In this document: piece after piece, positions 1 through 64,000 of the stretch
Layout: each line of letters starts with the position of its first letter
How positions within the stretch are numbered: the first letter of the stretch is position 1
Source: Heterotrichella gracilis
Taxonomy: Eukaryota > Sar > Xanthophyceae > Tribonematales > Xanthonemataceae
Assembly (NCBI GenBank): GCA_032358255.1
Contig: JAULBX010009327.1
Span: 41,397-105,396 of the forward strand
DNA length: 64,000 nucleotides
Reading direction: 5' to 3'
The notes under the pieces: generated by a model
What the model was told of the DNA's origin: nothing
Seen by the model: the letters and a program-made list of their open reading frames with translations, nothing else
Database searches by the model: none
Translations under genes and position numbers: made by a program

Positions 1-520
1 CCTGGAGGGGCGCCACCGTTGCCTTCAAGGCGATCGAGCACCACACTCTAAACCTTACATCCCCACCGCCTAAAAACCCTAAACATCTCCTGCTGCGCAG
101 CCACCTGGAGGGGCGCCACCGTTGCCTTCAAGGCGATCGAGCACCACACTCTAAACCTTACATCCCCACCGCCTAAAAACTCTAAACATCTCCTGCTGTG
201 CAGCCACCTGGAGGGGCGCCACCGTTGCCCTCAAGGTGATCGAGCACCACACCCTAAACCCTACATGCCCGCCGTCTAAACCCTAAACGTTCCCTGCTGC
301 GCAGCCACCTGGAGGGGCGCCACCGTTGCCCTCAAGGCGATTGAGCACAACACTCTTGACCCTAAAACCCTACATCCCTGCCGCCTAAACCCTAAACGTT
401 TCCCTGCTGCGCAGCCACCTGGAGGGGCGCCACCGTGGCCCTCAAGGTGATCGAGCACGTGGACAGCAAGCAGCCGGCCATCCAGCGGGAAACTGCGCTG
501 AGCGCCAACATCTCCCACCC
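1..520 (+). repeat. Tandem copies of a kinase exon 5' edge
   Basis: Five tandem copies begin at about 1, 104, 207, 308 and 418, a period of 101-110 bp. Each starts with CCTGGAGGGGCGCCACCGT and runs into the coding stretch for the kinase VALK motif. It then passes through a CCCTAAA-rich spacer ending in TGCTGYGCAG, an acceptor. Only the last copy continues into the rest of the exon (415-576). The first four are decayed shadow copies in the upstream intron. Confidence 0.93.
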
Positions 521-3143
521 CAATGTGGTCATCACCCACAAGGTGGTGACAGTCCCCTCTGGGGAGGGGCTGTCAGGTGCGCTGCGGCTATGGTAGCCAG
601 GAAAATATGGTTCGTTGGGGATGCCTCCCATGGGTTATGACTAGGGTATTACCCGTTACTCCAGGGTGGTGAATCACTGTGATTACACACAAGGTGGTGA
701 CTGTCAACTCTGGGGACGGCTGTCAGGTGCGCTGCCGCTATGGTAGCCAGGGAAGGTTTTGTCCATTGGAATTCACTCCCCTGCCATCGTGTTGGGGTTT
801 GTAACCCCCCATGGTGACTTTACATAAGGTGGTAACAGTCAAGGCTGGGGAGTTTGGTGGCCCCTCTGCCTTTCTAGCTGCCTCTAGGCAGACGCACGCG
901 CTGGCCCAAATTGCCCTGATACGCCCGATCCAGAGTATTTTAAACCCCTGATCCCCACGCCCAGCTAGTCCCCAACTGCACAAAGCAACCTGTTATACCA
1001 CTGCGGCTCAAACCCTGTTCCATTCCACCAAATAGCGTTTCAAGCGCTAATTTGCTGACTAGATTCCACCGAATAGCCTTTCAAGCTAAATCTGCACATT
1101 CCCGCAGGGCTGTCCACAGCTGACGACGCCACCGACGCCAGCAGCATGGATGGCTCCATCAAGAAGTTCATGGAGACCTGGATGGTGCTGGAGTTCTGTG
1201 ACAGGGGGTCCATACAGGACGCCATCACGCTCCCCACCAGGCAGCTCACATTCACCACAGACAGCATCACGGACCTGGTGCGTGCCCTACCCAACGCCTG
1301 CATGTGCGCAGCACCTGCATGTGCGCACCACCAGTCATCATGTTTACAGTGTTCTTTGTGCACCATGGCCACATGATCCCGGTGCCTCCATGTGCCCCCA
1401 TGTCTGGCACCACGCTCCTCAGCTGACCTTCACCAAGGGTAATAAGATAATAAGTCCTATTAGTATCTTATTACCCTTGCCTTCATCAAGAAAGGTGCCA
1501 CTGACCTGGTGCTGCACATCAAGAGGCCAGACGTGTCGATCACGTTAGCACACTCTCTTTATCTATTTACAACATGGAATGCCATTTCACCTGCACAATG
1601 AGGACTGCCTAGGATTTGCACCCTGAACCTTAAACCCTACCCCCCCGGTGTGCGCAGGTGAAGGAGTACGACACCCTGCTTGACATCGTCCAGGGCCTGG
1701 AGTACCTGCACAATGAGGTCTGCTAGGGTTTGCAACCTAAACCCTAAACCCTAAACCCCCCGTTGTGCGCAGGTGAAGGTGTACGACACCCTGCTTGACA
1801 TCGTCCAGGGCCTGGAGTACCTGCACAACGAGAGCATCATCCACGGGGACCTCAAGGCAGCCAACGTGCTGCTCAAGTCAACCCTGCAGACAAGCAGAGG
1901 CTACACATGCAAGCTGGCGGACTTTGGCATGTCCAGGTACAGTATGTGTGCCTTCCCCGTTCACCTGCTTTCGCATGCCGTGATCAGCGGTTCCTTGTAG
2001 GGTAGAGGTTAGTGAGTCAATGGCCAGCCTCCGAGGGATCTTACAAGTAAAGGACATCAATTCGTCGTTGCACCCATCAAGGCCTCTCAAGGTCATGTTG
2101 CATGGTAGGGACACGTGAGGGGATGTCCAGCCTCCGAGGCTGGCCCGTTCTCACTCAGTCTCTTCCTCAACCAACACCCTCATACTTGAGATGAGAAGCG
2201 TAGTTACTATTCATTAAGCCTATGATTTATTGATAATCTACCTAATATTTATTTGCTTATTTGGCATTTCCAGGTCTCTTGACCGCCACACCCACCTGAC
2301 CACCGCCACCTGCGGCACCATCTCCCACATGCCACCAGAGGTGCTGGAGTTCAGGAAGCTCACAAAGGCAGCGGACGTGTACGCATTCGGCATGCTCAGT
2401 AAGTGGAACAGGACCCTTGCCAGGGCTGTGAATGTGTAGGCCTGTTGAGTGGAACTGGAATCTTTGCACCATGCCCTGTCCTGACGGCAAGCACCTTAAA
2501 CCCTACAAGGTCAACACCCTATATCCTAAAACCCTCCCCCTTTGCAGTGTGGGAGCTGTACACTGGTGAGATGCCCTTCCGCGGCCTGTCCGAGGGCGAG
2601 GTGTACGTCAAGGTGGTGGTGGAGAGCTACCGCCCACCGCTGCCGGAGAGCTGCCCCGCAGACTACGTGGAGCTGTTCAGGTGCTGCGTGGTGCAGGACG
2701 TGGCGGAAAGGTGAGGCGGAAGGGGGTGTTAGGGTTGTACATGGGAAAGGGTACACCCTGCATATGGTGGTGGCGGGGGAGCGCTACCGCTGGCCGCTGC
2801 CGGGAAGCTGCCGTATGTGGAGCTGTTTAGGTGCCGCATAGTGCAGGGGACAGGTGAGGCGGACGCTGGAATAGGATTTGAGATGCTGAGCTCCTGAAGG
2901 GTGGCTGGACTAGGGTTTCAAGGGCAGGGTGTAGGGTTGGCGACTGTGGAACAAGTGGTACCGCCTGACGCACCTTTTCCTTCCCCCACTTGCAGGCCCA
3001 CCGTGCGCGAGCTAGTGCAGCGCATCAGCTCCCTCCACAGGGAGGCCAAGGCCAGCTCCCCCCCATCGGTGCAGAACACGCCAACCACCGCACCGCTGCT
3101 GGGCCTGCCCCGCCCCGAACCCATCCCTGGGAGCGCACCGTGA
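415..3143 (+). CDS. TKL/Raf-like protein kinase, 5' partial
   Basis: Serine/threonine-type protein kinase of the tyrosine-kinase-like (plant MAPKKK/CTR1-like) class. Exons read as 415-576, 1108-1277, 1773-1936, 2274-2398, 2548-2710 and 2996-3143; phases agree throughout and TGA ends at 3143. In order, the sequence shows the beta-3 lysine in VALKVIEH, an alpha-C glutamate in QRETALSANISHPNVV, hinge MVLEFCDRGS, catalytic loop HGDLKAANVLL (H-G-D instead of H-R-D), the DFG motif, the GTISHMPPEV segment where APE is replaced by PPE, and DVYAFGMLMWELYTGEMPF. It ends with the C-lobe arginine in the RPTVREL segment and a short Ser/Pro tail. The glycine-rich loop and any N-terminal domain lie upstream of the window. 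The kinase looks catalytically competent. Its substrate cannot be told. Several introns hold duplicated exon edges. Confidence 0.9.
530..860 (+). repeat. Tandem copies of kinase exon 3' edge and donor
   Basis: The exon end around ACAAGGTGGTGACAGTC with its donor TGTCAG|GTGCGCTG and the following GGCTATGGTAGCCAGG recurs at about 538, 688 and 825. The second copy still has the donor; the third is decayed. Period is about 140-150 bp. Confidence 0.85.
1591..1830 (+). repeat. 115-bp tandem repeat holding a duplicate kinase exon
   Basis: CTGCACAA(T/C)GAG recurs at 1591, 1706 and 1821, exactly 115 bp apart, separated by CCTAAACCCTA-type spacer and a TGTGCGCAG acceptor. The middle unit (1658-1717) is a complete 60-bp exon-like block with an acceptor and a GAG|GTCTGC donor. 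It keeps phase 0 and encodes a near copy of the start of the next exon. Confidence 0.92.
2615..2875 (+). repeat. Duplicate of kinase exon 3' part and donor
   Basis: The exon stretch from GAGCTACCGCCCACCGCTGC through the donor GTGAGGCGGA is repeated once at about 2780-2865 (GAGCGCTACCGCTGGCCGCT...GTGAGGCGGA). The copy carries internal deletions and is out of frame, so it sits in the last intron as a shadow. Confidence 0.85.
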
Positions 3144-3212
3144 AGCCAAACGGTGGGGATGCCCCGCCCCGAACCCATCCCAGGGAGCGCACCATAAAGC
3201 CAAACGGGTGGG
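3100..3212 (+). repeat. Direct repeat over the kinase stop codon
   Basis: Two copies of a unit of about 54 bp, CCCCGCCCCGAACCCATCCC...GGGAGCGCACC(G/A)T(G/A)AAGCCAAACGG. The first holds the TGA stop; the second lies in the 3' UTR. The duplication therefore covers the 3' edge of the coding region. Confidence 0.85.
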
Positions 3213-13033: not shown

Positions 13034-15958
13034 ATGCACAGTGCTCTGCTGCGCTCAGCCGCTGCCCTCTCGCCAAGGCTGCGCCCGGCCGCTATCCACA
13101 GCATGCAGCAGTCGCAAGGCTACGCATCTGAGAGCCAGGCGCTGGTGTTCAGTCGATACGGGGACCCTCGCGAAGTGTTGGAGTTTCGAACCGTGGCCCT
13201 CCCAAAAGTGGGACAGGACGACGTGCTTGTGAGGATGCTTGCGGTAGGTCTGCATTGGCTCTATGTTCAGGTTATTTACTAAATTATAATATCCTCCTTT
13301 TTCTTTTGTATGTATGTGTGTCACGGTGTCACCAGTGGTGACCCTCCTGGCTCGCCATATGCATGCATGTTGACTCCAATACAATGCATGCATATTGGCA
13401 TGCATGCATGTGTGTCTGAGCGTGTGTTTGATTGGCCCTGCCATCCTGCGTAGGCGCCAATCAACCCCTCAGACATCAACTGCGTGGAAGGGAAGTACCC
13501 GCTGCGCCCCACACCCCCAGCAACAGCGGGCAACGAAGGCGTGGGGGTGGTGGTCTCCAGCGGGAGCAATGTGAGTACCATATCCCCCCTGGCAAGCCAC
13601 CACACCCCACCCCACCTCACCAACTACATGTTTCACCACACGCCACCTAGCACACCAAATTTCACCTCCACACACGCATGAGGACATCGCAAAGGCTGGC
13701 AACCATTACCCAATGTGGCACGCATTGCACCATGACATCATCATCATGATGTCATGACAATGCCGCACTCCCGTCCAGAATCTTCAGCTGGCAAACAGAT
13801 ACTAACGTACTATCCAGGATAATGGCACGTACTCTACAATCATGTCTTGCATTCATATATATATATTGCTTACTAATGATTTTAATTTGTTTATGCGGGG
13901 AGAATATAGGTCCGATCGCTCTCCCCCGGAGACTGGGTGGTGCCCCTCAAGCCTGGTCTGGGCACATGGGCGCAGGCGGGGGTGTTCCCTGCATCCGCCC
14001 TCCACGCGGTGCCCACCTCCCTACCTGTGGAGGCTGCAGCAACCATGACGATCAAGTAAGGAACCCTAACCCTAAACCCTGAAACCCTAAACCCCAAAAC
14101 CTCCACCGGCAACCATGGCAATCAAATAAGGAACCCCAACCTTAAACCCTGAAACAGTAAACCCTAAAACCTCCACCAGTAACCATGGCAATCAAGTAAG
14201 GTACCCCATCCCTAAACCCTGAAACCCTTAATCCTCCCCATGGCAACCGTGGCAATGCCATAAGGGCGACGCAGCAACTCCTGGCAAATCCGTAACCATC
14301 ACTGGTGTTTATGAATCCAAATGCACATTATAACAGAATCTACGCACTTACCCATGGTGTCCGCCTGCGCAGTCCCCCCACCACCATTCGCATGCTTGAT
14401 GATTTCACCACCTTGGTCCCCGGGGATGTGGTGGTGCAGAATGGGGCCAACAGCGCTGTGGGACAGGTGGGTGTGAATTTCACATTGTAACGCCACCTGA
14501 TCAGTTGAACATGCGGCATCATCATGTGATCACTTGACCCCTCGATCACTCCAGCCACCGCTTCAAATTGCACTACTGACAATGCACCATGAGCCACCGA
14601 CACCCCCTCTCCCCCACCCGCCCACAATTCCCACCACCACCTCCTGCATGCAGCTAGTGATTCAGGTCGCCAGGGCCAGGGGGGTGCACACAATAAACGT
14701 TGTGAGGGATCGGCCTGACTTTGATACTCTGGCGGGTGAGCTGAAGGCTCTTGGAGGGGACGTGGTGACCACGGAAGAGAGGCTGAAGGAGGATATGGGT
14801 AAGGGTTTTGCACATATCAGCATCTATCTATGGCAGTGCGCATGCACGAGTGCACATCCGCCCCCACACCTCCTACACATATACATACTCCCCATCCCCA
14901 CCACCCCTCCCCTTACACCACACCCCCTCCCCACCAGCCGCCTCTGGCCTGCCCCCGCCCAAGCTTGCCCTCAATTGCGTGGGGGGGTCCTCCTCAACAG
15001 CAATAGCCAAGGCACTGTGGTACGTGGACATGCACATGCACATGCACATGCACATGCACATGCACATGCACATGCACGTGCACATGCACATGCGCACACG
15101 CACACGCACAGGTACTGTATATGTGAGGTGCCATTCACCATGAACAGGCATGTGACGATGCCACGCACCTGTAGCCTTGACTGCTTTTGTTGTGTTGTAG
15201 TCTCACATGCAGTCAAATTCAACAAAATGTTTTATCTGTCTTGTAATTATTCATATTTGATTTTCAACAATCCTGAGTTTGATCTACAACACTACAAATT
15301 GCAAGGATAAATTGATCTGTATTTTCTTTTATTATTTCCTGCAGCGTGGGCGGCACCCACGTGACCTATGGCGGCATGTCCCTCCAGCCTGTCACCATAC
15401 CCACACCACTGCTCATTTTCAAGGACATACGCGTGCGGGGGTTCTGGCTGTCAGGGGGGGCTAATGGGGGGGAGGCGGGGAAGCGGGGTGTGATCGACCA
15501 GGTGGCGGAGCTGATTGGCAAGGGGGCGATCGTCACACGGTAGGGGATCATCCTTTGGATCTTGTCTCCTTATTTCACTTTCGGACCAGGAGTGGCATAC
15601 GCCACTCTGTTCAGCATTCTCCTGGTGTCCTGCAACCTCCTGGGATTGGCATATCCTGGGATTGGGAACTGCAACGAGGCGCAAGGGTCTTTCAGACTGC
15701 GCCACGCGGTGAATCACTACCCTGTGCTGCATGTGCTGGCATGTGCAGTGCAGTTTATTCTGTTTTTCCTCATTGTGCTGAGGCCCTCTGATTTTGTACC
15801 CTTGGGATTGCCGCAGGACCCAGAGGGTCCCCCTGCAAGATTTCAAGCGGGGCCTGGAACTGGCGCGAGGAGGTGGAGGGGGGGCGAAGGTGGTGCTGGT
15901 AACAGAGCAAGGAGCGGAGGGTGCCGGTATAGGCAGAGGCGCTGTTGACATGGTGTGA
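13034..15958 (+). CDS. MECR: Mitochondrial trans-2-enoyl-CoA/ACP reductase
   Basis: Eight exons (13034-13243, 13454-13570, 13910-14055, 14373-14466, 14654-14798, 14938-15019, 15345-15539, 15817-15958) join in phase to 376 residues. The protein is a zinc-free medium-chain dehydrogenase/reductase that performs the last reduction step of mitochondrial fatty acid synthesis using NADPH. Evidence in order: an Arg/Ser-rich, acid-free N-terminus to about residue 30 (mitochondrial presequence); [37 protein letters not shown]; the nucleotide-binding segment [72 protein letters not shown]; and [12 protein letters not shown]. Length matches the family (about 370). The Gly-rich stretch near the C-terminus is unusual. 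Several introns contain duplicated exon edges. It is convergent with PPOX. Confidence 0.95.
14035..14265 (+). repeat. 70-bp tandem copies of MECR exon 3 donor edge
   Basis: AACCATG(A/G)C(G/A)ATCAA(G/A)TAAGG recurs at 14041, 14111 and 14181, with a more decayed copy near 14238. Each is followed by AAACCCTGAAAC-type telomere-like sequence. The true exon ends at 14055; the third copy (14181) still has an intact GTAAGG donor. Confidence 0.93.
15027..15112 (+). repeat. CACATG hexanucleotide microsatellite
   Basis: About ten units of CACATG, grading into CACACG, lie just inside the MECR intron after the donor at 15020. Its alternating purine-pyrimidine character and expected length variation make it a likely polymorphic marker. 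Confidence 0.95.
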
Positions 15959-16906
15959 TGGTTCCCACAGACCGGTGACCAGTCATGCCCGTCACGGTGG
16001 CGTTTCAGCCGAATACTTGCATATGCCCTGGGCTAGTCGTAGCGCTGCGTGGCGCCGCATGTGCAAGACTGACTGCTAATCTGGCTATTTTGCTGGAATG
16101 CATGTAACTAACTAACTAACTAACTAGTCGTAGCGCAACAGCCGCGTTGTAGGTTACACACGTTTATTGGAACTTTGTTGAACAGCATGACTTGTGCTTC
16201 GATGCGCTGCTGTTACAGTACATATCGTCCTCAGCCAGTACAATGCATGTCATGTGCGCTGTGACAGTGCTTTTCATCAGCAAGTAAAACCTTGAAGCTT
16301 CACAAAATCTTTGAACCTAAACATAAAGGAGGTTCTTGTAGTTGTGTACAGACTACTCGCCGTGCTGGCCCCCCGCAACAGTGGGGATTACACCCGTCTT
16401 TAAGATCACGTCTTGCCCCCCAAAACCACCAGTCCCCCTCCCTGTCCGTAACTGCAGCCATCCCCACATGGATGCCAACATATCGACCCTATAAAATATA
16501 GCAATCTTTTTAAGGCTGCCCCAACGCCACCCAACCCACTCCCTGCCCATGCCATTGGCACCACACCCAACACCCTCCTGAGGTCCGCGCCCTACAGAAA
16601 ACCCCTAAACTCTGCTCTATTATCCCTAAACACCAGCGTCTGCTCAAACAGCCGCTTTGCCTTTTATTTCTGCAGGGCCACCTCACTTGAGAAGCCATGC
16701 ATCCACGTCACACCTCCACACTCAGCCCTAGGGGCATACCCAAATCCCTATTTCCCCACCCAGCGCGAGCCCACCAGAAAAGTCCCTAACCCTACTTCCA
16801 AAACCCTTGATCCTGATTTACGCAGCTGCCTTGGCCTTTTGGACCTGCTCCGCACTAGCCCATCAGGAAAGACCTTAAAGCCTACTAAAAACCCTCCATT
16901 ACTGGT
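15959..16906. other. Convergent 3' region of MECR and PPOX
   Basis: No coding sequence supported. A TGTAA motif at 16103-16107, about 145 bp past the MECR stop, fits the green-algal poly(A) signal and is followed by a short (ACTA)n run. At 16808-16860 lies a decayed copy of the PPOX 3' coding end. Confidence 0.6.
16103..16107 (+). terminator. Candidate MECR poly(A) signal TGTAA
   Basis: TGTAA is the usual polyadenylation signal of green algae. It lies about 145 bp after the stop codon. No transcript data are available to confirm use. Confidence 0.4.
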
Positions 16907-16950
16907 TTACACGGCTGCCTTGGCCTTTTGCACCTGTTCCGCCACCTCGG
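16808..16950 (-). repeat. PPOX: Duplicate of PPOX 3' coding end
   Basis: The last coding bases of PPOX with its TAA stop (GTTTACACGGCTGCCTTGGC..., 16905 on) are repeated about 91 bp further downstream as ATTTACGCAGCTGCCTTGGC (16815 on). A weaker third trace lies near 16650. The repeat covers the 3' edge of the terminal exon. Confidence 0.85.
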
Positions 16951-39710: not shown

Positions 39711-40726
39711 TGGCGCACATACCACCTATACCACCCATGGCCATGCAGCGTGGGATGGCGTTGACTTCAATACTGAACATAGCTGGGGCCTTGAGTTTGA
39801 TATCCGATACATTTGATACATGATAATATCTCATGATAGGTGCACCAGTCTTATTTGATAATTGATAGCCGTTAATTTTACATGCACAGGAATGAAAGAG
39901 CTGATGCAATCGTCCAGATCGACATGGTTTGGCGTGGCGTGACGCACGATTGGCATCAATCATCTTGGATAGCATTATGTACAGTGTTCAATATGCCAAA
40001 GCATGTTGCTGTGTCCTAGTAGTAGGCAAGCAAGTTCATGCACGGTGTAATGGCAAGGTTGAACCTGCACATGTCTGAGGTGAAGAGTGCGGTAGGTTTC
40101 TTTCAAGTTGCAACAACGGGACACAAGCACCTGATCCATGCTGCCTATTCTTCTTGGAGCACAGTTGCGCCAGGAGAGCAACCCAATGTGCCCCACACCA
40201 GTCCAGGCATTTTACAGCCAAAAAACCCCTGTTGAGGGTTATGCTGGGATCATCCGCAGTGCGAACTCATGTTGCGAACTGCGCTGCCTTGACATATGCC
40301 ATGTCATTGACCCTTTATTTTCAAACGTTCCACTCGCACCCGCAAGGTTTGCTCAGGTGATCACGTGTGTTAAAACTGTCACAGGTGTTAACTGCTGTGA
40401 AGGGCCTCAACCTGGTGGTGGTGTGCGGGGGGCTTTGCTCATCAGGTGTCAGGTGGGTGGCGTGCATGCATGCATAGGTATGGGATATTCGCTGGTTAAT
40501 TGTCACTTCATTCTGCGCCGCCTGTGGATAATTGCACTCCATTCAGCTTGGGTGTGCAACCGCTGCCCGTGAAGGTTCACGGCATTTGCCGGCATCTATG
40601 GACAACAAGTTCTCAGGCTGTTTCTTCTTCGCAGGGAGGACCCATTTGCCAAGCTGAGTGGAGTTCATATATGTAGGACCTTACGTGGAGGGTTCAACCT
40701 ACGACGAGCGTGCCCAGTTGCCCATC
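39711..40726. other. Intergenic, F-box/LRR copies 2-3
   Basis: No gene supported. A pyrimidine-rich TTCTTCTTCGCAG acceptor-like site at about 40633 could belong to a 5' UTR intron of copy 3. Confidence 0.45.
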
Positions 40727-48500: not shown

Positions 48501-50629
48501 GTCAGCAGCTGGAGCACATGTTTTGGGGTGAGGGTCATGCGGGGTCAGGGTGAGTAAAAAACGCGACGCACTTGTGGAACCGGGTCTGGCAGCGCGCTAT
48601 TCTTTGACGCTAAAAGCATTTCAGGGTTTAAGGTTTCGACCTAGGGTAGCTGGAGACCAGGGCGCACCTGTGGCACGGGGTCTGGCAGCGCGCTGACGCA
48701 GAAGAAGGGCCCCAGCAGGCTGTCGGACTGGATGGAGCGCCCAAAGGTGGAGCGCGGGAGCCAGTTGGTTGCCTTGACCAGCACCTTGGCCACTGGCTTG
48801 CAGGACACCAGGAAGTGCAGGAGCTGCAGGGGGGCCGAGAAGTTGCCCAGCGGGGACACGGCCCAGATGCGGTTGCGCAGCTCCTGGGCTGTGGGAGCAA
48901 AGGGTTCCGGGTGTCAGTGTAGGGTTTTGCTGGGAGAGGGGGTGGCGCGTCACGACCCAGGTGCAGTCAAATAGGGATCTCACCGATTGGGTCCACGCTT
49001 GCAGGGAATTACCCCGCTCCTCTCTCACCCTTGTAGATCATTTACCCCGTTGCCCTTGAATCGTTTAGGGTTTAGGGTTTCAGGCCAAGAGTTTAGGGTT
49101 TAGGGTTCCTCACCTATGGGTTCCACCACCTGCTCCAGCCCGTCCTCCTCAAACCTGGCTGCAAACTGGTTAGGGTTTTGGGTTTAGGGTTCTCACCTAT
49201 GGGTTCCACCACCTGCTCCAGCCCGTCCTCCTCAAACCTGGCTGCAAACTCCTCCAGGAACCCCGAGGGCAGCGCCACGATCCCGCTCACGGCCGCCCAC
49301 CTGCTGTCTATGCTGTCAAGCAGCTGAAGGGCCCCGCGCTTCTGGGCAGCTTCGGGCTGCAACCGGCAAGGATGTTGGTTCGGCTGGCGGCACCAATGGA
49401 TTAAGGCTCATGGGAGGTACGACGCTGGGTTGTGATACCTTGAAGAAACACTTGTGTGCTGTTTCTGAGTTTACAAAAAAGCAGGTTTGAGACAAGCCAC
49501 AGCCCGTCACTAATTCAGACGGTTGCGACCGTGCACGGGTCCCCTCTCTCCCCAGGTTATATACCACAAGGCATGAGCACCTAGGTTAAACCATACGTGC
49601 ATAGGGTACCTGTGGGAACATATCCATGGTGAGCAGTAGGCCCGCGTAGTTGACCACCAGCTGCTTGGAGAAGGCAACCAGCTCCTGCACCTTGGCCGCC
49701 ACACCCTTGTCCTTGACCCCCGAGGCGGCCCTGAACTCGTCCGAGGCGCGCTCATAGCACCCCAGCAGGTACTGCAAGGGCGCCTGGGGGTAGTCTGTGC
49801 CATACTCCGTGAGGCGGGTCATGAGGGCGCCCTCCAGGTTGTCTCCCGAGAGGAGAATGATTTCATCGGGTTGGGCGTCGATGAGCTCCTTACGGAGCTC
49901 CTGTGGGTGGTGGGAGAGTGGGAGAGTGGGATTTAGTGCATATGAGTAGAGCCATGCGGTGGCATGGATGTTGATGCAGGACACCGATTGTACAGGATAT
50001 CAGTTGTGCAGAACACCCTTGGTGCAGGATGCTAGTGATACGACTAGTGTGGTTTAAAGTGTGGTGTCAACGTGGTTTCTGAACACCACTCGTACAGGGC
50101 AATACTGTGTATGAAATTGGTTGACATGTGGATCCATGCGGGCAGCATGCCTCGGTGGAGGAAAGAAAAACTCTTGGCTTATGCAGCAAATCACTCATCT
50201 GCGGTAACCTCCACCCAACGTGGGTTGGCTGGCGTGTATCCGGTCGGGCTGCACACTGCCATGCAATAACCCGCAATGCATGCATATGGAGGGTAGGGAG
50301 GAGACACCCAGCTTATCAGACAGTTCATATAGTTGGGCTTATATTTATAGCAAACATGGTGGGAGTTGGCAGTACACCAACCGGTAGACAGCCAATGCCA
50401 TGCATGCATATGTACCAAGTGCATGTATGGAAAGAGTAAAGTAACACTGACTTAGTCAAACACCCAACGTGAGAATCGTTGATGAAAGAAGATTGTAATG
50501 GGTTTGTACCTCAGCCACGCTTTCCAGAAGCAGGACGGGAGGTGTGGCGTTGCGATCGGCCTTGGAAGGGTCGAGAGTGAATGCAAACACGCGCCGCAGG
50601 ACCACATCTTCCTTCTTCCTGATATCCAT
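42583..50629 (-). CDS. UBE4: Ubiquitin conjugation factor E4 (UBE4/Ufd2)
   Basis: Sixteen exons on the minus strand: 50629-50510, 49900-49610, 49356-49197, 48888-48668, 48270-48115, 47818-47625, 47292-46972, 46851-46593, 46277-46113, 45726-45583, 45338-45236, 44882-44680, 44406-44214, 43868-43681, 43235-43044 and 42780-42583. All phases close, giving 1035 residues, the usual length of plant homologues. Ufd2-core elements include [115 protein letters not shown] and [19 protein letters not shown]. The C-terminal U-box (about 946-1020) shows [34 protein letters not shown] and DPFSRAPL. E4 enzymes elongate ubiquitin chains on pre-ubiquitinated substrates with CDC48/p97. The ATG at 50629 is the most likely start; an upstream exon cannot be excluded. 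Introns hold at least eight sets of duplicated exon edges. Confidence 0.95.
43450..43710 (-). repeat. UBE4: 111-bp tandem copies of a UBE4 exon 3' edge
   Basis: CCTC(C/T)G(C/T)(C/G)GCCATGTCAAACACC-type sequence recurs at 43458, 43569 and 43680, exactly 111 bp apart. The copy at 43680 is the real exon end with donor; the two others retain donor-like TCACCTC but sit in the intron. Confidence 0.93.
43840..44020 (-). repeat. UBE4: Tandem copies of UBE4 exon acceptor edge
   Basis: AGGGACTTGCGCTCGGGGCC, followed by TG(T/C)GRGGAT, occurs at about 43850 and 43940, with a more decayed copy near 43990 (TGTGCGCTTGGGAGCCTGCA). The first is the true exon start (43868) and acceptor; the others lie further into the intron. 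Confidence 0.88.
45070..45265 (-). repeat. UBE4: Tandem copies of a UBE4 exon donor edge
   Basis: CCTCTATGTGCTG-C-TGTGGCA occurs in the true exon at about 45243 and in shadow copies at about 45160 (GCACCTAGAATATCCTCTAT) and 45080 (CCTATGTGCAGCTTGTGGCA). They are separated by AGGGTTCAAGG/TTTAGGG-type spacers. Confidence 0.85.
45715..45900 (-). repeat. UBE4: Shadow copies of a UBE4 exon acceptor edge
   Basis: The exon start GGGGCATCCAGGCGTGGAGC (ending ACCTGGAGG at 45730) is copied at about 45806-45836 as GGGCATCCAAGCATGCAGCA with CCTGGTGGG, and more weakly at 45880-45900 (CCATGGAGCACCTGTGG). Confidence 0.8.
46437..46735 (-). repeat. UBE4: Partial UBE4 exon copy within an intron
   Basis: ACTCACCGGCAGGAACCTGA at 46440 repeats 46589. 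The copy then lacks a central stretch of about 55 bp before resuming with GGGGACACCAGGCGCAGCAG and continuing to the CTGCCTTGTGCACCA region. About 100 bp of coding sequence with its donor is therefore duplicated and then internally deleted. Confidence 0.92.
47457..47720 (-). repeat. UBE4: Decayed UBE4 exon copy
   Basis: GCCATGCCTTGCTCCATAGATCTATGAACGGGCCACACAC at 47462-47500, shortened here to its start, resembles GCCACGCCTTGCCCGCCATC followed by CTCTATGAACGGGTCGCACA in the true exon at 47640-47685. It is about 180 bp downstream of the exon in gene direction and heavily mutated. Confidence 0.78.
48560..48700 (-). repeat. UBE4: Shadow copy of a UBE4 exon donor edge
   Basis: GTGGAACCGGGTCTGGCAGC at about 48573 repeats GTGGCACGGGGTCTGGCAGC in the true exon at 48671, 98 bp apart. 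The spacer contains TTTCAGGGTTTAAGG-type sequence. Confidence 0.9.
49105..49255 (-). repeat. UBE4: Near-identical copy of a UBE4 exon donor edge
   Basis: About 55 bp beginning TCACCTATGGGTTCCACCAC, donor included, occur at 49110 and again at 49193, about 83 bp apart, separated by TTAGGGTTTTGGGTTTAGGG. The two copies are essentially identical, so this is the youngest-looking duplication in the window. Confidence 0.95.
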
Positions 50630-52133: not shown

Positions 52134-52318
52134 ACTCTGTGCCAAGGTGTGCGTGTACACACCACGGATACCCCTGGGCAGGGTTTCACAGCTCTATTTG
52201 GAGATTATTTTTCTGCAGCCAGCTCACCGCGCACGATGCAGCTCTGAGCCCACCATCTGGATACGCTTGCCTAGGGTTCCACCCAGCCGGAGTAGGGTTT
52301 TCCCGAAGCAGGCACACG

Positions 52319-54671
52319 ATGGACACCTCACCCCCAGACCCCACCGCTGCTACCCCCCACCTCCCCACCCCCACACAGCCGCTGTTTGTTGGTGGGGGCC
52401 GCAGGATGCCCTTTGACCATCCCTTTTTCGAGGAGGGCAACATTGAGCGGGAGCTGCTTGCCAGCCGCGGGTTCCATGATGCCGCCAGGCAGGGCCTGCT
52501 GGAGGGGCTGGCGCACGTGCAGACTGCGGGGATGCAGGCGCCGAGGTGTGGTGTGTGGTGTGTGTGTGGGGGATGGTTGGTGAGTGTGTGTGGCAAAGCT
52601 TGGGCGGGACACCACCCCGTGTGGTGGGGGGTGCCCAACATAGAGCGCTGTCTGTATACACTTTTTCATCTAGCCAAGGTGTGACCCCCCCCCCCACCCC
52701 CACCCCACATGCTGCCTCCCACATACACACCAAGCGTGTCGCCCCTTCTTCCCAAATGTCCTGATGGAGCGTGTGCCGCGTCCCACTCCCCAGCCCCCCC
52801 TCCTAACCCTCCCCCCCTCCTCCCCCCTCCAGGTCCCGCTGCAGCGTGTGCCGCGCCAGCCTTCCCACACCCCACCTTCTGGACATCCACGTGAGCGAGG
52901 TGCACGATGCTTTCTTCGCAGCGCAGGCCGCCAGGCGCATGAAGGTGCGGGTTTGAGCTTAGGGTAAATCCCTAAACCCTACATGCGAGTGAAGTGCACG
53001 ATGCATTCTTGGCAGCGCAGGCGGACAGGCGCATGAAGGTGCGGGATTGAGATTTGGGTACCACTCAGCAAAACCCTAAACCCTATACCTTAGTGAAGTG
53101 CACGACACATTCTTCGCAGCGCAAGCAGCCAGGCGCATGAAGGCGTGGAACAAGTCTTAAACCCTAAACCCTAAACCCAGTTGGAGTTGTCTCTCTCTGT
53201 CATGTGGGGGGAGACGTGAGGCAGGGCGTTCCGACCATGGTGGGCCTGGCGCAACCTGGCTATGTGTGATGATGTGCGCTGTCCAGTTACGACAGGGAAT
53301 GGCTTTGAGGCCAAGCACCAGCCAGTGCCGCATCCATTGCAGCGGGTGCGGATCAATGGTTGCAAGGCCGCACCCTCGCCGTGCATGCCGCGCATGCTGG
53401 AATTTTTGAATATAATATAAGTTCCAGTTACAATTGCCGGTGCATACACTGCTATCGAGCTCATGGATGCACCCTTGCTGTGTCACCCCCCGCCGCCCCG
53501 TTCTTCCCCATCTCCACCTCTTAATCCCCACCCCTGCCCTGTGCCTGCAGGTGTTTCAGTGCCTGGTTGAAGGCTGTGGCAAGAAGTTTTGCAGCGCCGA
53601 GGAGCGCAGGCAGCACCTGGTGGATTGGCACAGGTGAGGCGGGTTCTGGAGATCTTGCTGTTTGTGTTGCAAAGGAAGTCGATGTGGCTTTCATCAAAAG
53701 TTGCACTTCAAGTCTGTCTGGTGTCCACCTGGCATCTGCATGGCATCTGCATGTCCACATGGCGTCTGCATGGCCACACCTTTAGAGGTACATTATGGAT
53801 TGCCACCCACTGTGGCAAGCATTGGGCAAGTGGGCCGCCCTGTTTATCACGTGCAAGTGCAATGGGGCCATGGCGCATCCTAATGCAGGCGCCATGGTTG
53901 CCATGCCAGCCTCAAACTTGCAGCAACAGCACCACAGCAGTAGTTCCCCAAGCGGGTGTAGAACAGAATGACATTTGACTGAACCCCCAACCCTCAACCC
54001 CTGTGCAGGTTCCCAAAGAGCTTCAATTTTGAGCGCATGCATGTGCGCCACCACGCGCCGCAGCACCGCCCCGCACCCAACTACCGGAAAGCAGTTTCCA
54101 AACGCGTCGACATCGACACCCCCAGCCCCGGGGATGGAGCCAATTTCTCCGATTCCGGCTCGGGCGCTGCAGCCATCCCAGCCGCAGGGGATGGGGTTGG
54201 GAGCACCGCAGATGCGTCGACTGTCGGCCAAGGGGCGCAGGATATGGAGGGGGTGGTGCAGGGGATGTCGCGCCTGCGCATGGCTGCAGGTGGGGTGCCT
54301 GAACACATGGTAGTTGGTTAGGCATTCCAGCAACGCAGCAGTTTAATTAGTCAGTCTTGCACATGCGGCGTCACATAACTTGTCATGCATGGTGCTTCTT
54401 CCCATGTCCTTTTCATATGTGGCGAGTGGTGCTCCTGCATGCCTCCCGGGGATTGGGATTGCACCGCGAGGTGGCATAAGAAGTGGTACCGGGCACGGTG
54501 GCAAGTGGCATGGTGACATTTCACCAATGTTCTGTTATAATGACAGGTTCCTTTCTTTCAATAACATTTGTCTTTGCTGCAGGCGCTCAATCGGATGTGC
54601 CCGAGAGCATCTCGTTTGGGCGGCGGAGGGGCGGCGGCATGCAGCGGGGCAGGGGCAGGGGGGGGCGGTGA
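52319..54671 (+). CDS. ZNF511: ZNF511-like C2H2 zinc-finger protein
   Basis: Five exons (52319-52545, 52833-52944, 53551-53633, 54009-54289, 54583-54671) give 263 residues. After a Pro-rich start and MPFDHPFFEEGNIERELLAS come a C2H2 finger, CSVC...HLLDIHVSEVH (Cys about 79 and 82), and a second finger, CLVEGCGKKFCSAEERRQHL with VDWHRFPKSFNF. The tail ends with PESISFGRRRGGG and an RG-rich end. This order, including the FPK-F-F segment and the C-terminal FGRRRG, is that of animal and plant ZNF511. The family is nuclear and poorly characterised, thought to act in transcription. Shadow copies of exon 2's 3' edge lie in the following intron. Confidence 0.88.
52885..53150 (+). repeat. ZNF511: Three tandem copies of ZNF511 exon 2 3' edge
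   Basis: GTGAG(C/T)GA-GTGCACGA...TTC(T/G)(T/G)CGCAGCGCAGGC...GGCGCATGAAGG recurs at about 52890, 52988 and 53092 (period about 100 bp). The first is the real exon end (52944). Copy two keeps a GTGCGG donor; copy three has lost it. Spacers hold AAACCCTAAACCCTA. Confidence 0.94.
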
Positions 54672-55447: not shown

Positions 55448-58234
55448 ATGCGCGCTGCTGGGGTTCGAACCCAGGCCTGCAGGCCTGTGCGGGTGGTATG
55501 TTCGAACCCACACCAGCACCCGCCACCAGCACCACCCAGAGGAGGTGCCGCCAGCACAAGCACCGCCAACACCGCCGCCAGTGGGACGACGAGGAGGGAC
55601 GTGTTGCTGTCAGTAGGGGCGCTGGCAGGTACCGAGTGATAGGATTTTAGGGTTCAGGGGTGTTGGCATCCACTGGCTTGGCGCGAGCCATATGTGTGCG
55701 ACAGTGGCAGTATCATAATGCTATTCACCTGTGGCTTCAGTTATTTATTGCCACTCGTTGCACACATAAGGGCTTGTGTGCTTGCAGTACAGCCACATTC
55801 CTTCATGCCAACTTTGCATTGCCATGGCGCACACCACCCTCGTACACGCAGCCACCCAATCGACAACCCACTGGTTCAATATCTCATAAAATGCCGTGTA
55901 ATTCGAATCTCATGCCCAAATTTGGATCAGCAGGTGGCCTTGCATTGGCCCAGCCCCCCAGCGCTTCTGCCGAATATGTGCCCCTGCCTCAAATGCTGGC
56001 AGCAAACGTGGCCCCCGCTTCGACCCGCAAATTGGACCCTCGCCTAGCAGCGGCCTTCACTGGAGCAGTGTATGGCGCGCTGGTGGAGTTGAAGGTGGGC
56101 GGGTATAGGGTTTTCAGTTGGATGCGGTACCCTAGCACAGGGTGCAGTGTACTTCAAGAAAGGAAGAGAGGAATGGCAGAATTAGGGCCCACAAGTCAGG
56201 GCTTACAGCAAGGCACTGTGACCTGCCAGACGGCTGGCCAAACAGGGCCTTAGCCAATGCGGCCTATGAACGCTAAAGGGTCAACGATGTGTTATCTGGA
56301 GTTTCACAGGTTGGGGCACAGCGCCATGAAACCCTACACCTTAACATGGCCCTGTGCTGCTGCTCAGGTGATGTCCGAAGAGGATTTCCAGAGGGAGAAT
56401 TTCAAGCTCCGATCCCGGGAGTACCAGTACTACTACCAGGTCAACCAGGACCGCTTGCCCAGGGTGCCTGATCTGTCGGACGAAGGGGGGGCAATCACCA
56501 TCCCCGCCTACTTCAATTTTGTGTACTACATCCTCTGGAAGGTGAGGGGCTGTGCGGCTTTGTCTCTGATGCAGGATCGAGGGTGTAGGGTTTACATTCC
56601 TGGTTTCTTGATGCCGCATGCCGCATGCCGCAGTGGCACTGATGGTGCTAGAGCTTCCGTACCTTTGATTATGGTAGCTAGGGTTTCCACCGAGGTTTTT
56701 CCGACGTGCTGCAGGTTGTGCTGCTGCACATGGAGGACCCCCTCGCCCGCCAGGCCTTTGTGACTGAGGCTGGGCGCCAGCTGGCATCCAGGCTGGCACC
56801 TGAGCAACTGGTGGCACTGCGGGAGGCGGGGCAGGCGGGTGAGTGATGGGTTTTGACGATCATGTGACAGGTGCTGGTGGTGCATGTTTCTGGGAATGGC
56901 ATGTGCGATGGTCATATGTCTGACACCTGCTTATTGTGTTATAATGCGTGGTGTCCTGTTTGAATCAATTCTGTTGCAGAGGCACAGTGCGAGCTAGCAA
57001 CCTGCAACATGCTGACCCGGCTTTTACAGCCTGGAAAAGGCCGTTGACCCGCCATTTAACCAGTCACTTGTTCATATTCAGACGAAGCGACATTTTGTTG
57101 TTACTTGCAAACATTACAGGCGGCGGGCGGGCGCCAATAGCACACGTCCAATCAGCGGTGACCAGCGTCCTCGAAATCCTAAAGCAGGGTAACTACCTGA
57201 CAGGGTACGACCTCATTTGGGGTGCCACGCCCCCCCTGGCAGGCACAGGCCAATCAGCCTCCTCCCTGCTCCAGCAGACAGTGGAGTTGGATGGTGATTC
57301 GGCGACAGGGGGGGACGTCAGCGTTACGTCTACTAGTGGAGGGGGAGAAGAGGCAGGGGAGGGGACGGATGCAAATGAGAGGGGAGAAATGCAGGTATGG
57401 ATGGAGAGTAAAGTCAAACGTCAATCAGTATCCCTTCACATGTTTTACAGGTCCCTTGCCATAGAGGGGAAACTATATTCTAGGGCATTACCATGCACCC
57501 GCACACCGCACCAAAACCGTTATCCAGGCCTGGTTGCTCTACCTTCCCTATGCACAAAACCCCTAATTTAGGCATAAGATTTGCTCTGAGAGTAGACTCC
57601 CGCAAGTTTTCCAGGCCAGGCTGACATTGAGGGTAACCCTAATTTAGGGCATTATCTCTCACACACACACAGCTCCCAAACCCTAATCTAGGGCATCGTT
57701 CCCCTGCAGATTTTCCAGGCCAGGCTGCATGGACCGGCTGACATTGAGGGGGCTGTGTCGCTGCGAGGGGAGGAGGGGGGGTGGTGGGGGAGGGGTGTGT
57801 GGGGGCTGCTGGCGGCTGTGCTGGCGGCAGGGGGGTATGACACGGCGGATGCAGACGAATACTTCTTCCAGGTAGGGACGCCAATGCATGCGATGTCAAT
57901 GATCCCACAGTGGATGCCAATTACCATTGCATTTTCAGATTTGAAAGCCCACTCATGCAGCTGCAGTGTTTGAAATTCACATACCATAGGCAACTCATGT
58001 CATGGAGCAGCACAGTTGGAACCCCACACCCCTCCGCACCCATTCCTGGACGGTGTGCATGGCAATCGGTGGGTTTCATGTCATTAACCCCCCATTCCCT
58101 TTAATTCGTAGGACGAGTGGGTTGGTCCCCGGGATTTGGTGTCGCGTGTGGTTCTGTGGCTTGGTGACCCGCTGATGCAGGTGGAGGTGCCATGGGTGCC
58201 AACCACACTGGTACAGGACTGGAGGGTGGGGTGA
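55448..58234 (+). CDS. Thylakoid-lumen protein of unknown function (Tat signal)
   Basis: Seven exons (55448-55628, 55934-56094, 56368-56541, 56715-56838, 57120-57394, 57710-57871, 58112-58234) give 399 residues, ending in TGA. The N-terminus is a bipartite plastid/thylakoid signal. A Ser/Thr/Pro-rich transit part is followed by a twin-arginine motif at 49-50 (TTRRDVLLSVGALAGGLALA) and an ASA cleavage site at 71-73, so the mature protein starts near AEYVPL and is predicted to enter the thylakoid lumen by the Tat pathway. The mature part is a soluble alpha/beta protein (DFQRENFKLRSREYQYYYQV, IPAYFNFVYYILWK, MEDPLARQAFVTEAGRQLAS, SAVTSVLEILKQGNYLTGYD, DEWVGPRDLVSRVVLWLGDP). I do not recognise the family. 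A low-complexity Gly/Glu linker near 235-270 breaks it into two parts. Exon edge copies flank exon 6 and the stop codon. Confidence 0.8.
57590..57755 (+). repeat. Duplicate of thylakoid-gene exon 6 acceptor edge
   Basis: TTTTCCAGGCCAGGCTG, followed by ACATTGAGGG, at about 57608 repeats the true exon start at 57712. The two copies are about 104 bp apart and separated by ACCCTAATTTAGGGCAT-type sequence. The shadow lacks a 13-bp piece of the exon (CATGGACCGGCTG), so it would shift the frame if used. Confidence 0.88.
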
Positions 58235-61583: not shown

Positions 61584-64000
61584 TCAGATACAAAGTCTGC
61601 AACAAGTGCTTTGCCCCTGTGGCCCGGCTGCCAGTGCCTGTACCCTACCCCTGCATGTTAGGCCCTGCAATCGGCCGCCACCAGGCACCCTGCCCCGCAA
61701 CACCCTCCCCAAGGGTTTCCGTCCCCCGCCCAAGGGTTCCCTCCCCAGCCACTGTTGCCTCGCCACCCCTTGCCACGTGTTGCCCCTCCCACAGCTAACT
61801 CGTTGTGGCTGACCTTGTGTGCATGCGCTGGCCACTCCACTGCCTGAGGGCCCAGGCCCGGCGTCCGCACCTGGCGGGAAATTCCCTCCCCCAGCTCCAC
61901 CCGCCCTTTCCTCCCCTTCGCCACTGCTCCCCTCCCCGCTTCCTCCCTGAATCTTCCCTCCCTGTGTGTTTTCACCCCCTTGAGAGGTGGCAGCACCAGA
62001 ATCCGCCACCTGGCGCCTGTATACCATCGGGAGGATAGGGGAGGGGGCCGCCAGCTGGCGAGCCACCACCGCACCCCCCACCAGCGCCACCACCAGCGCC
62101 ACACACACCCACAGCAGGGGGGCGTCGGCTCGGTACCCTAGCGAATACCCTAGGGGGGTGACGGCGATGGATGCCACAGGGGCGACCAGGGTGAGCAGGG
62201 CGAGGGAGGTGAGGTTGGATGCCTGGAGGAGGGTGGCTGCTAGGTTCTCGTTGAGGCGGAAATTGTGTGAGAACTGCATCACCTGGGATCGGAGAGAGGG
62301 AAGAGAGTCAGCAGCCATGACCAGCAGCAGGTGGTATACCCTAGGGGCGTAGCATCAAAACCATGGGGGGGGGGGTGCATTCGGGGAAGCTGTGTAGGAA
62401 CCACAGTCATGACCAGGGGGGTGGGGAGGGAAGCGGGGAGGAGACGTGTCAACAGCTAGTGGAACCCTAGAGGGTAGTCCGAGGAGACTTGCATGAACGC
62501 GGTGATGGAGAGAGGCTACAGTGGGGAGCGGTGAACCCCTACAACAGCGTTTAGTGCCTTCCCAGCGGGTATGGGCGCTAGCCTGTTGCCAAGGGTTATG
62601 GTTCCAGGGTTCCTAGGGTTTTCCTCACCGCCGCGGGTATTGGCGCCAGCCCGCACAGCACCACCGCCAGCGCCCCATGCAGCGCCACCCCCCTGAGCCC
62701 CACAGCCGCCACCGCCCCCAGCACCAGGGGGGGTACAAAACGCATGGCAAGGATGGCGCTCACGTCAGCCACCTGTGGAGGGGGTGGGGCGGCGAGGGTG
62801 GAGGCGAGGGGGTGGTGGTGGTGCACAAGTGGGCATCATGACGGCACGGGGGGTGGTACACGCATATAACTTGTTCTCCGTTGCATGTGCCTCGTCGGTG
62901 CTCGAGTAGACAAAAAGGCTGTTGCTTTCGATGCTGAATTACCTCGCTCCATGCAAATACAATACCCTACGTCCTGAATTCTATGGATTTCCTAGCTAGA
63001 AATCCTGAAATTTCTAGAAAAAATCACAATAAGAGTGCCCATCGCGCGGAGTTAAGTGCTGTGTAATAGTCACCTTTGCCTGTGGCTACATCTCTCGCTA
63101 AATTAAACCCTACACAGTCCTCAGCTCTCATAACACAAACCCTCATCGAGCACCAGCCAGCAGGAGTGAGATTGGGACCAGAGAAGTGTGGGGTGGAAAG
63201 ATGGGGGGGAGGGGTGGGGGGTGCATATGGGTGGAGGGGAGGATGGAGAAGGTGGGGTGATGGGTGCGGGATGAGAGGGGGAGAAGTGCACTGGGCCCAA
63301 CCGCAGCTCCTGACTAGCTGGCATGACAAACTGCTCTCAGGAGTATATGTCTTCATCATCGGACTTTTGCTTACAAACTATCACCCGTTTTGGGTGCACA
63401 CCACATTTTACTCTGCAAAAAGGAATAACGCAGCGCCCTGACCACACCCAATACCCTAGCCACACCCTACATCCTCCGCTACCCACACAGCCCCCACCTG
63501 CCGCTTTTCTGGCAGCTTCACCCTCAGAGACAGGCCAAAGCAGGCCAGCATGAGGGGGATGTGGGCCGAAGCAAGCAGCGCCGCCGCCGCCCCCACGCCC
63601 GCAGGGGGGGTGAACCCACTGAGGGCAATGGCCAGGCCAGCCACCAGCGCCCACAGGGGGGGGAACGTGGTGAGGAGCTGTAGGGCGTCGGAGAGGCGGG
63701 CACCGCCCACGTGGATGCTGCAGGGGAGGTGGGTGGGTGGGGCGATGGGGGAGGCAGCAGTGGCATGGGTGTGAAGGGGGAAGCAGATATTAATCCAGGG
63801 CCACGAGTCCCCCCTTCTCCCACCCTGGAACCCAATGTGCATCCATAACCATTGCCTACATATACCTCACCCACCCAGTCATCCACCCCTGGGACCCTAC
63901 CAGGATGCCGCCCCGCCGCCTTCAACACATCCACATACAAGCAACACACACCAACCCCTGCCCCTCACCTGCGCGCCACCCCTGCCGCCTCCACCGCCTG
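61584..64000 (-). CDS. Auxin-efflux-carrier-like membrane permease, 5' partial
   Basis: Four exons are visible on the minus strand: 64000-63969 (cut by the window end), 63717-63498, 62772-62629 and 62282-61584. The protein has strongly hydrophobic segments typical of the AEC/PIN-like family (ten-helix transporters for auxin-like or organic acids): FPPLWALVAGLAIALSGF, IPLMLACFGLSLRVKLP, SAILAMRFVPPLVLGAVAAV and LAVVLCGLAPIPAA, followed by VMQFSHNFRLNENLAATLLQ. The last two match the family's P-A-V-A helix and the downstream loop. The final exon adds another hydrophobic helix (PLLWVCVALVVALVGGAVVA) and then about 110 residues of Gly/Gln/Ser-rich low complexity, unusual for the family. That tail might instead be partly spliced out. 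The N-terminal half is beyond the window. Confidence 0.75.
62560..62665 (-). repeat. Copy of a permease exon donor edge
   Basis: GCGGGTATGGGCGCTAGCCT at 62566 copies the true exon-end sequence GCGGGTATTGGCGCCAGCCC at 62634, 68 bp away. The gene's donor (CCTCACCG) lies at 62623-62630, and the spacer between copies carries TCCTAGGGTTTTCC. Confidence 0.82.

What the first reader, a model, noticed from the sequence alone, without database searches (positions are those of the whole stretch)
1..64000. Pervasive tandem duplication of exon edges with their splice sites
In at least eleven intron-bearing genes (kinase, MECR, PPOX, F-box/coiled-coil, FAS1, UBE4, Mediator-like, ZNF511, thylakoid, methyltransferase, permease) the edge of an exon, its splice site and adjacent intron are tandemly repeated 2-5 times at 70-150 bp periods. 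The copies sit inside introns as shadow exons in every state from near identical to almost gone. Intronless genes (APS kinase, F-box/LRR) lack them. This fits a process that duplicates short stretches across exon-intron joins, as in the model of intron birth by tandem duplication of AGGT-bearing segments, but here it appears to be the rule. The mechanism and its bias to exon edges are, to my knowledge, not described in this form. It is the strongest candidate for a new system in the window.
Basis: partly seen in the sequence, partly recalled or inferred. Interest (0 to 1): 0.9.

Follow-up and report, generated by a model that had tools for sequence, protein, structure and literature searches.

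The report
Exon-edge copies joined to telomere repeats
In this green alga, short stretches spanning exon ends and their splice sites have been copied many times into the neighbouring introns, often together with pieces of chromosome-end (telomere) repeat, which suggests a DNA-repair process that keeps enlarging introns and making spare splice sites.

Summary
In 264 kb (window plus 20 ten-kb samples) there are 136 local direct repeat pairs of 35 bits or more, against none inverted or in simulated sequence, in 84 clusters. The exon-edge bias is real: among recent copies (88% identity or more) in classes that cannot harm coding, 16 of 26 span a splice site (6.0 expected) and 0 are intergenic (5.7 expected). 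Shadows decay like neutral DNA.

It sits in 70 of 401 predicted introns, clusters 5-10 bp behind donor sites, and raises the odds of an exon-edge copy 7.8-fold.

The intron-birth (AGGT) reading is not supported: donor-edge to acceptor-edge pairs are not enriched; the copies enlarge existing introns.

Best reading: repair of staggered breaks near splice junctions by fill-in, with telomere repeat as frequent filler or trigger, then tandem amplification. Each part is known elsewhere; density, splice-edge focus and telomere link look new. Break chemistry is inferred.

The parts
1..458 (+). Kinase gene: four upstream copies (period about 103) of acceptor plus first ~44 bp of the real exon starting at 415, each followed by degenerate CCCTAAA filler
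   Evidence: real exon 415-576, kinase Pfam
528..754 (+). Kinase gene: donor edge of exon 415-576 copied into the intron (weaker third copy to 854)
1589..1832 (+). Kinase gene: acceptor edge of exon 1773-1936 copied upstream (shadow exon 1658-1717), telomere-type tracts 1620-1639 and 1736-1758
2612..2863 (+). Kinase gene: donor edge of exon 2548-2710 copied downstream
3100..3207 (+). Kinase gene: tandem pair over the end of the last exon (gene end, not a splice site)
14037..14248 (+). MECR-like gene: three 70-bp copies of exon end + GTAAGG + telomere-type tract (exon 13976-14055)
16768..16942 (-). Direct repeat at the low (3') end of the PPOX gene; touches the gene end, not a splice site; classed intergenic
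20176..20502 (-). PPOX: edge of exon 20418-20604 copied into the intron
22185..22416 (-). F-box/coiled-coil gene: edge of exon 22130-22234 copied upstream
28691..28952 (+). FAS1 gene: end of exon 28591-28740 in three copies with telomere-type tracts (28842-28878)
29188..29615 (+). FAS1 gene: donor edge of exon 29150-29235 in about five copies, spacing 90-106
30087..30252 (+). FAS1 gene: acceptor edge of exon 30214-30472 copied upstream
43449..43746 (-). UBE4 gene: donor edge in three copies, period 111
43843..43993 (-). UBE4 gene: acceptor edge copied upstream
45123..45267 (-). UBE4 gene: donor edge of exon 45236-45338 copied, each copy followed by a telomere-type tract
46437..46731 (-). UBE4 gene: end of exon 46593-46851 copied, with an internal stretch missing from the shadow
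48567..48694 (-). UBE4 gene: A-X-A, 27 bp exon + GTGCG copied beyond a 64-bp stretch with a telomere-type tract
49088..49250 (-). UBE4 gene: 54 bp exon end + GTGAG + telomere-type tract, 96% identical tandem pair
52888..53178 (+). ZNF511-like gene: donor edge of exon 52833-52944 in three copies separated by telomere-type tracts
57457..57727 (+). Thylakoid gene: intron-intron direct repeat, no exon edge in it

Best explanation
An ongoing repair process adds short direct duplications at exon-intron joins across this genome. Inferred sequence of events: (1) a staggered break or pair of nicks forms near a splice junction of a transcribed gene; (2) the single-stranded ends are filled in, so the overlapped stretch (about 50 bp of exon, the splice site, a few intron bases) ends up on both sides; (3) the ends are joined, often with filler, and the filler is frequently telomere repeat added or captured during repair; (4) one copy keeps its link to the exon and is spliced as before, while the other lies in the intron as a neutral shadow; (5) units that include the telomere tract are amplified in tandem to 2-5 copies. 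Shown: the copies, their geometry, their neutral decay, the splice-edge bias, the telomere link. Inferred: breaks, fill-in, telomerase or telomere-fragment involvement, and order of events.
For: Direct orientation: 136 direct, 0 inverted pairs at 35 bits (171 and 3 at 30 bits). Two forms among 49 exon-to-intron copies at true splice boundaries (two further cases at gene ends set aside): plain tandem 10, and A-X-A 39; in 20 of those 39 the copy ends within -12 to +15 bp of the splice site, and 7 of the 11 with 93.5% identity or more end at +5 to +12. Two X segments searched match only themselves. Telomere: (CCCTAAA)8 in 11 contigs only, in six of them within the first 200 bases; 103 short tracts in 264 kb against 0-4 for the 19 other letter arrangements; 36 of 99 tracts flanked by direct repeats, control 0.3%; tract within 30 bp of a splice site raises odds of an edge copy 7.8-fold, p 4.9e-6. 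Whole genome: donor then C-strand telomere within 8 bp 96 matches (94 distinct places), reverse order 11. A further set of 20 donor+telomere sites, chosen without regard to duplication: 10 carry a downstream copy of the exon end (score 34 or more; control 0.75%). Shadow neutrality: differences by codon position 31/36/69 in 35 recent pairs and 83/90/135 in all 55, near the 1:1:2 expected if the exon drifts silently and the shadow freely. Splice-edge bias in recent copies: 16 of 26, expected 6.0, p 3e-5.
Against: No break, repair intermediate or polymorphism was seen. 57 of 84 clusters hold no recognisable telomere tract (27 do), so telomere is not needed. In several arrays both copies carry the tract (L018, L023; L032, L035, L039, L044, judged by eye), so there the tract preceded the last duplication and may be cause rather than filler. 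Why intron-side ends hug the splice site is not explained by fill-in alone. Acceptor-near tracts are not clearly in excess (16, expected 11.0, maximum 22 in 2000 trials). GTAAGGG donors are over-represented at in-register telomere junctions (27 of 35 in the 100 listed rows, counted by eye) although GTGAGGG is not rarer among sampled donors (10 against 7 of 387); unexplained. Exons are predicted, not measured.
Confidence: 0.5

Rival explanations
1. Survivorship: short local duplications strike everywhere alike; those in exons are purged, and those touching exons stay recognisable longer because the exon side is conserved.
For: Exon-exon pairs are few (4 of 84, expected 8.9). Weighting exon-touching classes by about two would bring the all-age counts near those seen, apart from intergenic DNA (my arithmetic).
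Against: The age-matched set removes most of the detection advantage: at 88% identity 16 of 26 copies span a splice site, expected 6.0 (p 3e-5), intergenic 0 against 5.7 (p 0.0015), intron-intron 5 against 9.7; at 85%, 20 of 34 against 7.4 and 1 against 7.5. It also does not predict ends hugging the splice site (7 of 11).
Confidence: 0.2
2. Functional retention: C-rich or G-rich telomere tracts are kept near splice sites because they aid splicing (branch-site-like CTAAAC before acceptors, G runs after donors); duplication is a by-product of these unstable tracts.
For: Tracts before acceptors are 15 C-sense to 1 G-sense; 531 matches telomere-then-TGCAGG against 216 in reverse order; donor consensus is itself G-rich after GT.
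Against: Tracts occur in only 70 of 401 introns. The strand bias is equally explained by selection against TTTAG acting as a false acceptor (inference). It does not explain telomere-free exon-edge copies.
Confidence: 0.2
3. Intron birth by tandem duplication of AGGT-bearing exon segments (Rogers model).
For: Exon-edge copies carry AG|GT and 21 shadow copies were called as exons by the gene finder.
Against: Edge-edge pairs, which include the direct product, are 6 of 84 against 8.0 expected. What follows the shadow is predicted non-coding in most examples printed.
Confidence: 0.05
4. Introner-like mobile elements that insert at splice-like sites with target duplications.
For: A-X-A geometry resembles insertion with target duplication.
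Against: With telomere tracts masked, only 8 dispersed hits in 264 kb, all between local paralogues in the window (F-box) and in L021; X matched only itself in 2 of 2 tests; duplicated stretch mostly 25-100 bp, longer than usual target duplications (recalled).
Confidence: 0.03
5. Old tandem copies whose exon part is kept alike by gene conversion while the intron part drifted away, giving copies that end at the splice site.
For: Would explain sharp ends near splice sites without special breaks. X resembled the neighbouring flank above the 99% shuffle level in 7 of 29 gapped recent pairs.
Against: Codon-position pattern fits simple one-way neutral decay. 22 of 29 gapped recent pairs show no such resemblance.
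Confidence: 0.1

Closest known systems
Short interstitial telomeric sequences inserted at double-strand breaks in mammals (PMC2246262, PMC7215372; passages seen)
   Same: Short telomere tracts at internal sites, inserted in one step, sometimes with duplication of the target and with bases in register with the repeat
   Different: There target duplication alone accompanies 6 of 130 rodent and 4 of 25 primate cases (PMC2246262) and 3 of 66 horse loci, and the intronic share in human (31%) fits random insertion (PMC7215372). Here 36 of 99 tracts are flanked by direct repeats, 99 of 103 lie in predicted introns, and they crowd behind donors
Small tandem duplications from fill-in of staggered breaks by CST and Pol alpha-primase (PMC8355091; abstract, introduction and discussion read)
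   Same: Short direct duplications; overhangs of tens of bases; CST is a telomere complex
   Different: Nothing on splice sites or telomere sequence at the duplications in the sections read; whether it acts in this alga is untested
[quoted passage not shown] passages seen)
   Same: Tandem duplication of exon stretches carrying AG|GT
   Different: Here the copies mostly fall into existing introns; edge-edge pairs are not enriched
Intron gain at staggered breaks in Daphnia (Li et al. 2009, not seen; as reported in passages of PMC3443670)
   Same: Direct repeats flanking inserted sequence at splice boundaries
   Different: Short repeats and new introns there; here mostly 25-100 bp exon-edge copies and enlarged introns
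Plant telo boxes (PMC3022908; passages seen)
   Same: Telomere motif inside genes
   Different: In Arabidopsis and rice enriched in 5'UTRs and not in introns overall; no duplication link in the passages seen

Membership tests
Intron gain by AGGT tandem duplication | One copy spans the donor, the other the acceptor of the same intron | tested here: not met
   edge-edge pairs 6 of 84, 8.0 expected; holds for the bulk, not for every single case
Intron gain by AGGT tandem duplication | Intron absent in relatives | not testable with these tools
   no related genome held; best UBE4 homologue 47% identical
Telomeric repeat insertion at breaks (short ITS) | Internal tracts of the organism's own telomere repeat | tested here: met
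Telomeric repeat insertion at breaks (short ITS) | Empty site in a related genome | not testable with these tools
   no relatives of G000 held
Telomeric repeat insertion at breaks (short ITS) | Junction bases in register with the repeat | tested here: inconclusive
   35 of 100 listed rows (138 matches) read AGGTRAGGGTTTAGGGTT; no such peak by eye in the C-strand donor list or the 100 rows shown
Short tandem duplication by fill-in of staggered breaks | Direct orientation, short unit | tested here: met
   136 direct, 0 inverted at 35 bits; 82 of 84 offsets up to 240 bp
Short tandem duplication by fill-in of staggered breaks | Dependence on end-joining and fill-in factors | not testable with these tools
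   needs mutants
Introner elements | Shared sequence in many introns | tested here: not met
   (264 kb, telomere masked)

The most novel reading that the evidence does not exclude
Telomerase heals broken 3' ends at splice donors: the donor GTRAGGG ends in telomere-like AGGG, so ends exposed there are extended in register with TTTAGGG, or even templated together with a donor-like start, and rejoined to the duplicated exon edge. Telomere maintenance would then be a main author of intron growth and of spare splice sites in this genome.
Probability: 0.15. Interest if true: 0.93.

Novelty: new variant of a known kind. Interest (0 to 1): 0.74.

Why it matters
At about 84 clusters per 264 kb sampled, this genome should hold very many natural, dateable events in which repair at exon-intron joins enlarges introns and supplies decoy splice sites. 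The exon-shadow pairs carry their own clock (codon positions 1-2 against 3). It links two separate subjects, telomere healing of breaks and the growth of introns, and makes the question of how introns gain sequence and new splice sites directly testable with strain resequencing and RNA.

Tried and rejected
Inverted copies: 0 pairs at 35 bits, 3 at 30 bits. Dispersed intron families: none in 264 kb beyond local paralogues. X captured from elsewhere: 2 of 2 segments matched only themselves. A-X-A as tandem units with a drifted intron part: X resembled the neighbouring flank above the 99% shuffle level in 7 of 29 gapped recent pairs, so not excluded for some, rejected for most. Shadow exons under coding constraint: rejected, codon positions 1 and 2 about equal. 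Opposed telomere tracts as fused healed ends: 1 of 15 neighbouring tract pairs, no support. Precise homology end at GGG in the 20 fetched sites: looked so at first (where my query was cut at that point), but one search shows that several copies carry telomere sequence too; dropped. In-register seeding at acceptors: not visible by eye. Species naming: not possible beyond green alga. On checking, two of the 51 copies proved to lie at gene ends and not at splice sites; one search gives the corrected counts used here. By-eye counts: 35 of 100 rows, and the telomere-like copies. Gene models are my own HMM, which merges neighbouring genes; 21 shadow exons were removed by rule before class counts. 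Telomere-distance counts were made before that removal and include tracts inside arrays, so they are not all independent. In one search the age-matched test left out the classes that could harm coding: 5 of 39 copies at 85% identity and 2 of 28 at 88%.
Full report
What the window is. The window is part of a 68.5-Mb eukaryotic assembly of 903 contigs. Proteins place it among green algae: the 120 listed APS kinase hits are 60-73% identical and the named ones are mostly green algae; the best UBE4 hit is Myrmecia bisecta, 47%. No close relative is held. Five spliced pieces from five of the eight window models were tested: Pfam kinase, zinc dehydrogenase (MECR-like), amine oxidase (PPOX-like) and, over the full core, Ufd2 (E 4e-173) plus U-box; the ZNF511-like piece matched nothing.

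The observation. Local direct repeats are dense: 136 pairs of 35 bits or more at 25-700 bp offset, against 0 inverted and 0 in order-2 Markov sequence; at 30 bits 171, 3 and 0. They form 84 clusters covering 21.7 of 264 kb. 28 of 41 predicted genes with three or more exons have at least one, against 1 of 5 with one or two exons. Offsets are 55-240 bp in 82 of 84, with a main group at 70-130 and a second near 180-220.

Are exon edges favoured? After removing 21 shadow exons, best pairs per cluster were classed: edge with intron 39 (13.2 expected under random placement), exon with intron 16 (9.7), intron with intron 13 (22.5), intergenic 2 (12.6), edge with edge 6 (8.0), edge with exon 4 (6.8), exon with exon 4 (8.9). 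One of the two intergenic pairs lies at the end of the PPOX gene. Since a conserved exon keeps a pair recognisable for longer, I repeated this with recent copies only and only classes that leave coding intact. At 88% identity or more: edge with intron 16 of 26, 6.0 expected, p 3e-5; intergenic 0, 5.7 expected; intron with intron 5, 9.7 expected; exon with intron 5, 4.3 expected. At 85%: 20 of 34 against 7.4; intergenic 1 against 7.5. So the bias is real and not only survivorship, with the caveat that exons are predicted.

Anatomy. Of 49 exon-to-intron copies at splice boundaries, 10 are plain tandem units and 39 have another stretch X between the copies (A-X-A). With telomere tracts masked, A is typically 40-50 bp of exon plus the splice site and about 10 intron bases, for donors and acceptors alike (medians 52 and 10.5 for 22 donors, 41 and 12 for 17 acceptors). 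In 20 of 39 A-X-A cases the copy ends between -12 and +15 of the splice site; of the eleven with 93.5% identity or more, seven end at +5 to +12. In such young copies the missing intron flank is hard to blame on decay.

Dating and neutrality. Exon against shadow, 35 recent pairs: 31, 36 and 69 differences at codon positions 1, 2 and 3; all 55 pairs: 83, 90 and 135. That is near the pattern of an exon changing silently and a shadow changing freely. It also argues against assembly error, which would give identical copies or unpatterned differences.

The telomere link. Arrays of eight CCCTAAA units occur in 11 contigs: within the first 200 bases in C-rich orientation in six, and in G-rich orientation in five (lengths of those five contigs were not fetched). 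So TTTAGGG is very likely this genome's telomere. The exact 16-mer CCCTAAACCCTAAACC occurs 3052 times, its reversed control once. Short degenerate internal tracts: 103 in 264 kb, against 0-4 for the 19 other circular arrangements of the same letters; 99 of the 103 lie in predicted introns, 4 intergenic, 0 in exons. They are in 70 of 401 introns. 27 of 97 start within 15 bp of the donor (9.4 expected for random position in the same intron; maximum 18 in 2000 trials), with the mode at 5-10 bp; acceptor-near tracts are not clearly in excess (16 against 11.0, maximum 22) but are 15 to 1 in C-strand sense. 36 of 99 tracts are flanked by direct repeats (control 0.3%). 22 of 75 stronger tracts lie inside repeat clusters (7.1 expected). 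A tract within 30 bp of a splice site raises the odds of an exon-edge copy 7.8-fold (11 of 41 against 33 of 736 edges, p 4.9e-6). Still, 57 of 84 clusters have no recognisable tract.

Whole-genome checks. AGGTRAG followed within 8 bases by AACCCTAAAC gives 96 matches (two pairs overlap, so 94 places), the reverse order 11, and some stand in tandem at 76-116 bp (C25, C45, C75, C277, C316, C412, C656). Telomere then TGCAGG within 15 bases: 531 matches, reverse order 216. AGGTRAG followed by G-strand telomere: 138 matches; of the 100 listed rows 35 read AGGTRAGGGTTTAGGGTT, in register with the repeat, 27 with GTAAG and 8 with GTGAG, counted by eye. I fetched 20 of these in-register sites (15 of the 27, 5 of the 8): the upstream flanks printed are unalike, and the cross matches shown (60 of 186) centre on the donor-telomere piece. 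10 of 20 have a copy of the exon end downstream at score 34 or more, 13 at 28 or more (controls 0.75% and 1%). In four of the twelve alignments printed (L032, L035, L039, L044, by eye) the copy also runs into telomere-like sequence, so there the tract was present before the last duplication.

What it is not. Not introners: no shared intron sequence in 264 kb beyond local paralogues. Not the AGGT intron-birth model for the bulk. X matched only itself in 2 of 2 tests. The genome has one recognisable TERT locus, two adjacent matches at C626.

How it may work. In mammals telomere repeats are inserted at double-strand breaks, sometimes with target duplication and with bases in register (PMC2246262, PMC7215372; passages seen). 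Small tandem duplications arise when CST and Pol alpha-primase, which also fill in telomere ends, fill complementary 3' overhangs before end joining (PMC8355091; abstract, introduction, discussion read). Together these would give A-telomere-A at a break near a splice site, and, without telomere, A-A or A-filler-A. Copies that leave a working donor attached to the upstream exon or a working acceptor attached to the downstream exon are tolerated. What this does not give is why breaks should favour splice junctions, nor the GTAAGGG excess. Telomere-like AGGG in the donor may be part of the answer; breaks tied to transcription may be another. Both are inference.

Literature. Nine searches on telomere repeats with introns or splice donors, intron gain, short tandem duplication and exon-intron boundaries in algae listed no title or abstract reporting this combination. 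Most hits were seen as listings only, some lists were cut (for example 12 of 22), and the library lacks most subscription papers.

Noticed in passing
G000 C70, C140, C609, C712, C717, C770 (starts); C173, C460, C607, C660, C872: Telomere arrays of eight or more CCCTAAA units mark apparent contig ends; for the last five the contig length was not checked.
   Followed up: partly
G000, one search list: At in-register donor-telomere junctions GTAAGGG outnumbers GTGAGGG 27 to 8 in the 100 listed rows, although sampled donors show 7 to 10; a templated or primer preference is possible.
   Followed up: partly
window 35663-36481 and 38893-39717: Two neighbouring F-box/LRR genes, 88.5% identical over 827 bp, in a stretch free of clusters.
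   Followed up: no
window 15028-15110: ACATGC microsatellite of about 13 units in the MECR-like gene region.
   Followed up: no
window 31834-31881: Perfect 24-bp tandem pair.
   Followed up: no
84 clusters in 264 kb: Offsets fall in two groups, about 70-130 and 180-220 bp; the second may be twice the first with a lost middle copy.
   Followed up: no
G000 C420:132531-139217: Four similar donor plus G-strand telomere junctions over 7 kb, perhaps a larger local repeat.
   Followed up: no
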